A program made the position numbers and the translations under genes. A stretch of 64,000 nt of DNA, taken from Tubulanus polymorphus. Lineage: Eukaryota > Nemertea > Palaeonemertea > Tubulaniformes > Tubulanidae. The notes beneath the pieces are model-generated. The model was given only the letters and a program-made list of their open reading frames with translations. It was not told the origin of the DNA and did not search any database. Location of the stretch: assembly GCF_964204645.1 (NCBI RefSeq), contig NC_134035.1, forward strand, positions 5,704,501 through 5,768,500. Reading direction: 5' to 3'. This document shows positions 3,645 to 23,829 of the stretch, piece after piece (the first letter of the stretch is position 1; every line of letters begins with the position of its first letter).

Positions 3645-6600
3645 ATGTGTGGATTTTTACTGAATTCGACTATCTTACTTTTGCTTCTTTGGTGGCGCGG
3701 TAAGTAATACATTTATTTATCTATCTTGTAAATTCTATCAGATGAGATTCCCGATAACATAACCACGTATCATTAATACAATAACCAGAAACAATTCAAT
3801 TACATGGGAACTATTGGTGAAATAGTTCAACTTAGTTTATTTGACAGATTCGAGGTTTTGCACTTCGAAGAGTTTAGGAACATAATGACGAAACATATTC
3901 AGGAAATTCTCGAAAATGACTTCATAATTCTATTTTTTTAATTACGCAAAATGTAATGGCGTTTACTGTTGGTACTAAACATCGAAACATGTATGGGTTC
4001 CTGTGAAAACAATGATAGTAATTTATTCGCTTATATTGCGCAGAACTGTGTTTATAAAAAAATCAATGGATACCACGTAGAAAAGTCATTCCTAAATACG
4101 AATTAAAAATATACACGTCTTAAAGAATATAGCACTAATTATCAATGATTTTCCGTCTAATTTTTGTCAAATGCTGCCGGATACTAGAAATATTGTACTG
4201 TCATAGTTGAAACCATGCAGTAGCCTCTTTAGTAAGCAAGCAGCAGCAGCAGCAGCAGCAGCAGCAGCAGCAGCAGCAGCAGCAGCAGCAGCAGCAGCAG
4301 CAGCAGCAGCAGCAGCAGCAGCAGCAGCAGCAGCAGCAGCAGCAGCAGCAGCAGCAGCAGCAGCAGCAGCAGCAGCAGCAGCAGCAGCAGCAGCAGCAGC
4401 AGCAGCAGCAGCAGCAGCAGCAGCAGCAGCAGGGATATATATTGGAAAACTGTCTTCCGGTTGTCATAATGTCGGAGTGGATGAGATTAGACTCCATAAA
4501 ACGTTTTAGACTGCATAAAACGTTTTTAGAGTCTCTTCGTCGTAGAGTCCCATTGACTTATAAACGTTGATTACATTGGACTATGATTTTTCCACGTAGT
4601 TAGCGGGCAGCATTCCGGTTTCACCAGTTCGTTCAACTGTTCCAGTCATCCAGCCATCATCAATGATTTCGGCATTGATGATGAAATCCCCTTCGTCGAA
4701 AGACACTTCGTCGTCATCAGCTGCTGCGTAATCGTAAAGAGCTACGTATCGCTACAAGAAATATATATAGAAACGGGGGAAGCATTTTATTATAAGTGTT
4801 TTGATTAAACTTTTCTAAGAATATCATCAAAGACCCTTTCCCTTTTATTACAACACGGATATCATCACGGACCTTTAAATTAGAGTTTAACCCTAGATTG
4901 TCTATAATGTTCATGATCATACTTATTTTTATGATAGTATCCTTGTATTTTTATGAAAAAGTGTCGTAATTCGAGTTAATATTAGGTCCGTGTCTCATAG
5001 GTCACACATATATCCTAGTCGAATATCCGTGGAGAAGAATAATAGATGGCAGAAATAAAAAATCCACTTTATACAAAACGAACTTATGATGAAAAATGAA
5101 AGGACTCCATCGTTCAGTCGATCGTCTCTCGCTATATAGTATCCGATATTGTCTGACATTTCAAGGGTCTGGGCTGCGATTTCCACGAGAATAATGATAG
5201 CACACATCGCTGACGGATTCTGCTGACGGAGTTTTTAACAAGGTTTCGAAAATCGAAAGCACTTACCGCTTGTCCATCCGCTGCAGACACCTGCGGAGAA
5301 GGCGTAGGACCTGGTTGAGGAGGTGGCATCGCTGCTGGCGGCGGTGCGTTATCCTAAACATAAATACAACACTAGTTTCTTAATGGGCATTTAATTTTCG
5401 AAGAACAGTTTAACTGGATTTTATAACTTCGACTGGAAGGTCTAAGGGGCCAACAGGTTTTTGTTAGGAAATAATCTAGACTTCCACTTGTTTTACGTTT
5501 GAATGCCGATACGGCTATGTCGCTAAAGCTCGAAGTGAATTCATGATTATTACTTGTCTTTGACTTGGAGTCTGTGTTTTCGTCTTGTATGCCAGCTCGC
5601 TAGCTTGGGCTTGGGACTTTTTAATTCTTAAGGTTTCTGGATCATCTGAAACAGCTGTATATTTCCCTTTTTCTTTTTCAAACTGAAAATATATGAGTTA
5701 AATCTCAGCAAACCTCCAAGGGCGGCAATCAAAACCCTCGCAAGCGAGGAGGTGCAGCATAAGGAAATAGAGGCATTCAGTGTCTTTCTGAATTCAAGCA
5801 AAAACCCAAGTAATTAATTGCACCCCCCGTTTTTAATCGTAATTTATCAATCAAAAAAAAATTCTTCCGCCAACTAGAGAAAAAAGGAGTTGTCTTTTTG
5901 CTTACGTCTACATGGTATTGGATACTTGATTGATCTTTTGTGTTCTTGGCGAGCCGGCGATTTTCCGGGGTATCAGCAACGGCCGTGAAATGAGTGGTCG
6001 GGTAGTGCCTGTAATAGAAAATACATTGTCTAGCTTAAACAGCCCGGCAACTACTCCACGTAGAAAATACTCAGCAGTAGTAATCGCAAAAAGATCTTTT
6101 TAATCCGAAAAGTTTTCCATATTACTTACGTATTACAATACGGCAGTTTTTTGTATCCTTTGTAAGTCTTCATCGTGAGTGTCATGTTGCAAACTTCGCA
6201 TTTGAAACAAGCTTTGTGCCAATTCTGTCCAAAAATATAGCACGTGAAATGTGTATTTCATATATAAATGGAAATTATATACGGATTATCGTCGCGTAAA
6301 ACAACGAGATACACGTATAGCGGGCTAATATTGAGAATCATCATACCTTATCCAGACACATTAGTTTTTCCACCGGGTAAACGGTTTTCTCGCATCTATG
6401 GCAGGAGGGATTCATGGCTATAACTCTTTCTTTACGATTTTCTGATTCACCTTTAAACCGCCAACTAAATAACTGCTAGAATATTATATACGATTATACT
6501 ACTTGTTGTTGTCGCCGCTGTCCTCTGTTTAGATGCGACCTATAATGTAGAACCCGGTAATAACGCGCGCTTCAAGGCTGTATCTATTGTTTTAATGACC

Positions 6601-23829: not shown

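What the first reader, a model, noticed from the sequence alone, without database searches (positions are those of the whole stretch)
3645..23829. Undescribed-looking secreted protein of four exon-pair cysteine modules
Seen: nine exons join in one open frame to a 438-residue product with a signal peptide and four modules. Every module has six cysteines in the same order. Each is coded by two exons whose introns alternate between phase 1 and phase 2, so a module is bounded by phase-1 introns, the symmetric arrangement expected from tandem duplication of an exon pair. Inference: a new disulphide-rich, helix-rich repeat domain; the hydrophobic C-terminus may anchor it by GPI or as a membrane tail. 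I recognise no named family.
Basis: partly seen in the sequence, partly recalled or inferred. Interest (0 to 1): 0.72.

Follow-up and report, generated by a model that had tools for sequence, protein, structure and literature searches.

The report
Four-module neuritin-like secreted protein gene
An animal gene appears to encode a secreted, possibly surface-anchored protein built of four copies of a cysteine-stapled module that resembles the brain protein neuritin; the gene looks real and unannotated, but its kinship and function are unproven.

Summary
Nine exons (3645-23829, +) rebuild exactly: 438 residues, GT-AG introns, phases 1,2,1,2,1,2,1,2, signal peptide, four six-cysteine modules, hydrophobic C-terminus. 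A poly(A) signal follows the stop, exon 1 is the top signal-peptide exon of a scan of 18.5 kb, and chain-wide codon usage leans to coding. In all four modules the inner phase-2 intron sits at the same place before cysteine 4. Modules diverge strongly; only 2 and 4 are clearly alike, and A-B-A-B pairing scores best. No Pfam family passes its cut-off. Module 1 matches neuritin below cut-off (E 0.002), module 3 the RGM N-terminal domain (E 0.036), but module 4 also matches an irrelevant family at 0.0062. Modules 1 and 3 share the C-x8-C-x7-C core of neuritin and RGMB. Neuritin similarity exceeded Cys-fixed controls (0 of 100 as high), RGM similarity not clearly (8 of 100). Best reading: a tandem, possibly GPI-anchored, neuritin-like surface protein, a new variant of a known kind. 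Fold was untested (no structure job was accepted); the genome search answered two requests only.

The parts
3645..3699 (+). Exon 1: start codon and signal peptide ([18 protein letters not shown]), ends in phase 1
18508..18652 (+). Exon 2: module 1 first half, cysteines 1-3 plus extra C22
18947..19074 (+). Exon 3: module 1 second half, cysteines 4-6
20252..20366 (+). Exon 4: module 2 first half, cysteines 1-3 (lowest in-frame coding score of the nine)
20567..20715 (+). Exon 5: module 2 second half, cysteines 4-6; reciprocal best match of exon 9 among 6587 ORFs
21111..21267 (+). Exon 6: module 3 first half, cysteines 1-3
21974..22107 (+). Exon 7: module 3 second half, cysteines 4-6; weak RGM_N match; weak donor GTATTA
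22720..22876 (+). Exon 8: module 4 first half, cysteines 1-3
23553..23829 (+). Exon 9: module 4 second half, cysteines 4-6, linker, hydrophobic C-terminal tail and stop
23858..23863 (+). AATAAA poly(A) signal just after the stop, supporting exon 9 as the last exon

Best explanation
A real animal gene for a secreted protein made of four neuritin-like modules in tandem (A-B-A-B). Each module is probably a small helical bundle locked by three disulphides, as known for the RGM N-terminal domain. The protein is possibly tethered to the outer cell membrane by a C-terminal GPI signal and would work as a multivalent binding rod for an extracellular partner (ligand or receptor). Shown: exon chain, cysteine order, intron placement, terminal hydrophobic segments. 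Supported but not proven: kinship of module 1 with neuritin. Inferred: fold, disulphide pairing, GPI anchor, binding role.
For: Exact gene model with alternating phases; chain-wide coding score, signal exon, poly(A) signal. Module 1 vs Pfam NRN1 E 0.002 over NRN1 positions 7-58 of 89; module 3 vs RGM_N E 0.036. hhalign of the four modules (cysteines aligned by hand) vs recalled NRN1 and NRN1L: E 9e-4, score 22.7, 0 of 100 Cys-fixed column shuffles as high (highest 21.5); module 1 alone also 0 of 100. The two most hydrophobic 11-residue stretches lie at the N- and C-termini; a candidate omega site is Ser408 with a 30-residue tail.
Against: All Pfam matches are below the curated cut-offs; unrelated families score alike, e.g. 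module 4 vs DUF5446 E 0.0062. hhalign probability is only 23%. In pairwise alignments M2 and M4 are no better than shuffles against NRN1 (554 and 801 of 1000), and M1-NRN1 is reached by 40 of 1000 Cys-fixed shuffles. 1 of 30 Cys-fixed shuffles also matched NRN1, at E 0.052. The trimmed module 1 scored lower, E 0.0074. The neuritin family search of the own genome found nothing, this gene included. The tail ends in charged SKINCR, poor for a GPI signal. No fold was computed.
Confidence: 0.45

Rival explanations
1. A lineage-specific disulphide-rich repeat domain of its own, with the neuritin-like spacing of modules 1 and 3 reached by convergence or chance.
For: No family above its cut-off, and unrelated families at similar E-values. 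PDB: whole protein one irrelevant match (E 0.36), module 1 none, module 3 ten weak irrelevant ones. Cys spacing alone can give a weak NRN1 hit (1 of 30).
Against: 0 of 100 Cys-fixed shuffles reach the NRN1 profile score; the top hits of modules 1 and 3 are two six-cysteine families with the same spacing.
Confidence: 0.35
2. A member of another helical, cysteine-rich surface family (DUF19/T20D4.11, chondroitin proteoglycan 4, GDNF-receptor/GAS1 type; names recalled), with neuritin only a distant cousin.
For: Human NRN1 itself shows a sub-threshold DUF19 match (E 0.0088), so these families may be one superfamily; tandem GPI-anchored helical domains are recalled for GDNF receptors.
Against: None of these families was listed for the whole protein, the modules or the module pieces at E up to 10; the scan drops most matches above about 0.1.
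Confidence: 0.1
3. Partly wrong gene model: exon 1 belongs to another transcript, or alternative exons give another C-terminus.
For: Intron 1 is 14.8 kb; exons 1 and 4 have no frame advantage in codon usage, and 7 of 9 exons have some other frame of the six that scores higher; exon 7 donor is weak; no transcripts.
Against: Exon 1 is the top-scoring signal-peptide exon upstream; poly(A) signal right after exon 9; phases agree throughout.
Confidence: 0.12

Closest known systems
Neuritin (NRN1/CPG15, Pfam PF15056)
   Same: Six cysteines with C-x8-C-x7-C core; module 1 aligns over NRN1 positions 7-58 at E 0.002; neuritin is secreted and GPI-anchored (recalled).
   Different: Neuritin has one module (recalled); here four, paired A-B-A-B; matches are below the family cut-off; modules 2 and 4 have no neuritin match in Pfam.
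RGM N-terminal domain (Pfam PF06535; RGMA, RGMB, hemojuvelin)
   Same: C-x8-C-x7-C-x21-C spacing in RGMB; three-helix bundle with three disulphides according to PMC7354924 (passages); weak match of module 3.
   Different: No RGM C-terminal domain match, no RGD/RGN loop, profile score not clearly above shuffles (8 of 100; module 3 alone 3 of 100).
Twisted gastrulation N-terminal domain
   Same: Small three-helix disulphide bundle that binds BMPs (PMC11167000, passages).
   Different: Seven disulphides there against three possible per module here; no such family in the Pfam rows.

Membership tests
Neuritin (PF15056) | Profile score over the curated cut-off (27 bits) | tested here: not met
   18.7 bits for module 1, 16 for the whole protein
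Neuritin (PF15056) | Six cysteines with C3-x8-C4-x7-C5 core | tested here: inconclusive
   Met exactly in modules 1 and 3; M2 is 8-8 and M4 20-8
Neuritin (PF15056) | Similarity beyond cysteine spacing | tested here: inconclusive
   0 of 100 Cys-fixed column shuffles reach the hhalign score, but probability 23%, and 40 of 1000 Cys-fixed shuffles reach the pairwise M1-NRN1 score
Neuritin (PF15056) | Single module with GPI anchor (recalled) | tested here: not met
   Four modules; the anchor is only a rule-of-thumb candidate
RGM (PF06535/PF06534) | N-terminal domain over cut-off (24.2 bits) plus RGM_C domain | tested here: not met
   14.7 bits for module 3, no RGM_C row
RGM (PF06535/PF06534) | RGD/RGN loop that contacts the BMP family ligand | tested here: not met
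   No RGD or RGN in the protein
Neuritin/RGM N-domain fold | Three-helix bundle with three disulphides | not tested
   Structure prediction accepted no job

The most novel reading that the evidence does not exclude
A tandem surface receptor or ligand trap of an animal lineage, built by A-B duplication from an ancestral exon-pair module that also gave rise to neuritin and the RGM N-terminal domain; it would unite these two families and mark a multivalent branch of them. Against it: recalled NRN1 and the RGMs do not match each other directly here (862 of 1000 shuffles; E 0.61).
Probability: 0.15. Interest if true: 0.6.

Novelty: new variant of a known kind. Interest (0 to 1): 0.4.

Why it matters
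Neuritin is a neurotrophic GPI protein (recalled). None of the titles or abstract starts listed by the paper searches describes a tandem neuritin-like protein; papers that merely hold the word were not opened, and two lists were capped. A tandem version with conserved exon-pair architecture could link neuritin to the BMP-binding RGM N-terminal domain and offer a way to test what the module binds.

Tried and rejected
Leave-one-out profiles from three half-modules did not recover the fourth among the ORFs of 264 kb: best ranks 22 (M2b) and 105 (M1b), the other six 218 to 3406. As single queries only exon 5 and exon 9 find each other. AABB and ABBA histories score lower than ABAB (Z sums 1.68 and 4.29 against 7.68), though M2-M3 is nearly as similar as M1-M3. 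No paralogue was found within 100 kb on either side, but these profiles also miss left-out modules, so a diverged one could be missed; an apparent hit in L018 (E 0.016) is a 28-residue ORF with one cysteine. PDB searches gave nothing relevant; recalled NRN1 has no PDB match. Ten of the longer ORFs inside intron 1 matched no Pfam family at E up to 0.01. The first 10 kb of contig 77 (15,646 bases) were read as a possible mitochondrial genome, to place the animal: no tRNA (bacterial code) and no mitochondrial gene by eye. One search timed out without output and was redone. One search's signal-exon scan had too high a threshold (none found, not even exon 1); one search lowered it. Paper search returned none; 25 one irrelevant paper; 43 irrelevant titles (12 of 1829 shown); 57 none holding 'neuritin' among 12 of 1062 shown. 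On checking, I lowered the best explanation from 0.50 to 0.45 (unrelated Pfam hits of like strength) and the novel case from 0.20 to 0.15 (NRN1 and RGM do not match each other), and raised the rival of an own domain from 0.33 to 0.35.

Full report
Setting. No named relatives were available.

The gene. Joining the nine exons gives one open frame of 438 residues with GT-AG introns and phases 1,2,1,2,1,2,1,2. Independent support: a codon score trained on 1019 codons of seven other ORF stretches of the window (some chosen by eye) is reached by 10 of 2000 stop-free random chains. The true frame is the best + frame in 7 of 9 exons (not 1 and 4), but the best of all six frames only in exons 2 and 6, so single exons are not resolved by it. 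A scan for signal-peptide exons ending in phase 1 found exon 1 as the strongest on the + strand of 1-18507 (the other two entries are nested starts of one exon, 6957-7068, with lower score), none on the minus strand, and one weaker in 24001-64000. AATAAA follows the stop at 23858. No transcripts could be checked.

The modules. 24 of 27 cysteines fall into four sets of six. In each set the inner intron is phase 2 and C4 is the eighth residue after the split codon. Similarity between modules is weak. Against 2000 Cys-fixed shuffles each, M2-M4 was reached by 0, M1-M3 by 12, M2-M3 by 18, M1-M2 by 66, M1-M4 by 132, M3-M4 by 1235. Exons 5 and 9 are reciprocal best matches among 6587 ORFs (E 0.0019 and 0.0006), but leave-one-out profiles fail for all eight halves. 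The cysteine spacings fall into two types, M1/M3 and M2/M4. The most economical history is an A-B unit duplicated once; this is inference, and M2-M3 similarity is close to M1-M3.

What it resembles. No Pfam model passes its cut-off for the protein or any module. Module 1 matches neuritin (PF15056) at E 0.002 (0.0074 when trimmed) and module 3 the RGM N-terminal domain (PF06535) at E 0.036; module 2 matches nothing, and module 4 only irrelevant families (best DUF5446, E 0.0062). M1 and M3 have the C-x8-C-x7-C core of NRN1 and RGMB. Controls: of 30 Cys-fixed shuffles of modules 1 and 3, one matched NRN1 at E 0.052, none at 0.002, and none RGM_N. Profile comparison, with cysteines aligned by hand, against recalled NRN1 and NRN1L gave E 9e-4 but a probability of 23%; 0 of 100 Cys-fixed column shuffles were as high (highest 21.5 against 22.7), and 0 of 100 for module 1 alone. 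Single modules 2 and 3 gave E 0.032 against neuritin and module 4 0.6, without shuffles. Against three recalled RGMs 8 of 100 shuffles were as high, and 3 of 100 for module 3 alone. In plain pairwise alignment M1-NRN1 was reached by 16 of 1000 full and 40 of 1000 Cys-fixed shuffles, M3-RGMB by 18 and 61, M2-NRN1 by 554 full and M4-NRN1 by 801 full; NRN1-RGMB itself by 862. So kinship with neuritin is likely but unproven for module 1, suggestive for module 3, and rests on shared architecture for modules 2 and 4. An own-genome search with the neuritin family found no match at E up to 10; since it reads exon by exon and did not report this gene either, it cannot exclude diverged relatives. No paralogue was found within 100 kb, with the limited sensitivity shown.

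How it may work. RGM N-terminal domains are three-helix bundles with three disulphides that bind ligands of the BMP family, at the type 1 receptor site (PMC7354924, passages); Twisted gastrulation uses another small helical disulphide bundle at the same site (PMC11167000, passages). By analogy the present protein would be a multivalent extracellular binder. The RGM binding loop is absent, so BMP binding is not predicted, only worth testing. The C-terminal 30 residues after a candidate omega Ser408 contain a hydrophobic stretch but end in SKINCR: a GPI anchor is possible, not established.

Verdict. The most likely status is a tandem, unannotated variant of the neuritin-like kind. Paper searches listed no title or abstract start about such a protein; only listings were seen, two were capped, and the library holds open-licence papers only.

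Noticed in passing
25022-35428 +: Acetyl-CoA synthetase-like gene downstream on the same strand (ACAS_N, AMP-binding and AMP-binding_C matches).
   Followed up: partly
28415-29379 +: Two overlapping ORFs that look by eye like a seven-helix receptor, lying inside the span of the acetyl-CoA synthetase-like gene; no Pfam match at E up to 0.01.
   Followed up: partly
46061-46339 +: Ribose-5-phosphate isomerase A exon.
   Followed up: no
53591-54850 +: 420-residue ORF with weak leucine-rich-repeat and Zer-1-like matches, preceded by a run of leucines.
   Followed up: no
4211-4450: Long CAG-type trinucleotide run inside intron 1, open in several frames.
   Followed up: no
3582-3631 +: Two short upstream ATG frames in the leader before exon 1's start codon.
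   Followed up: no
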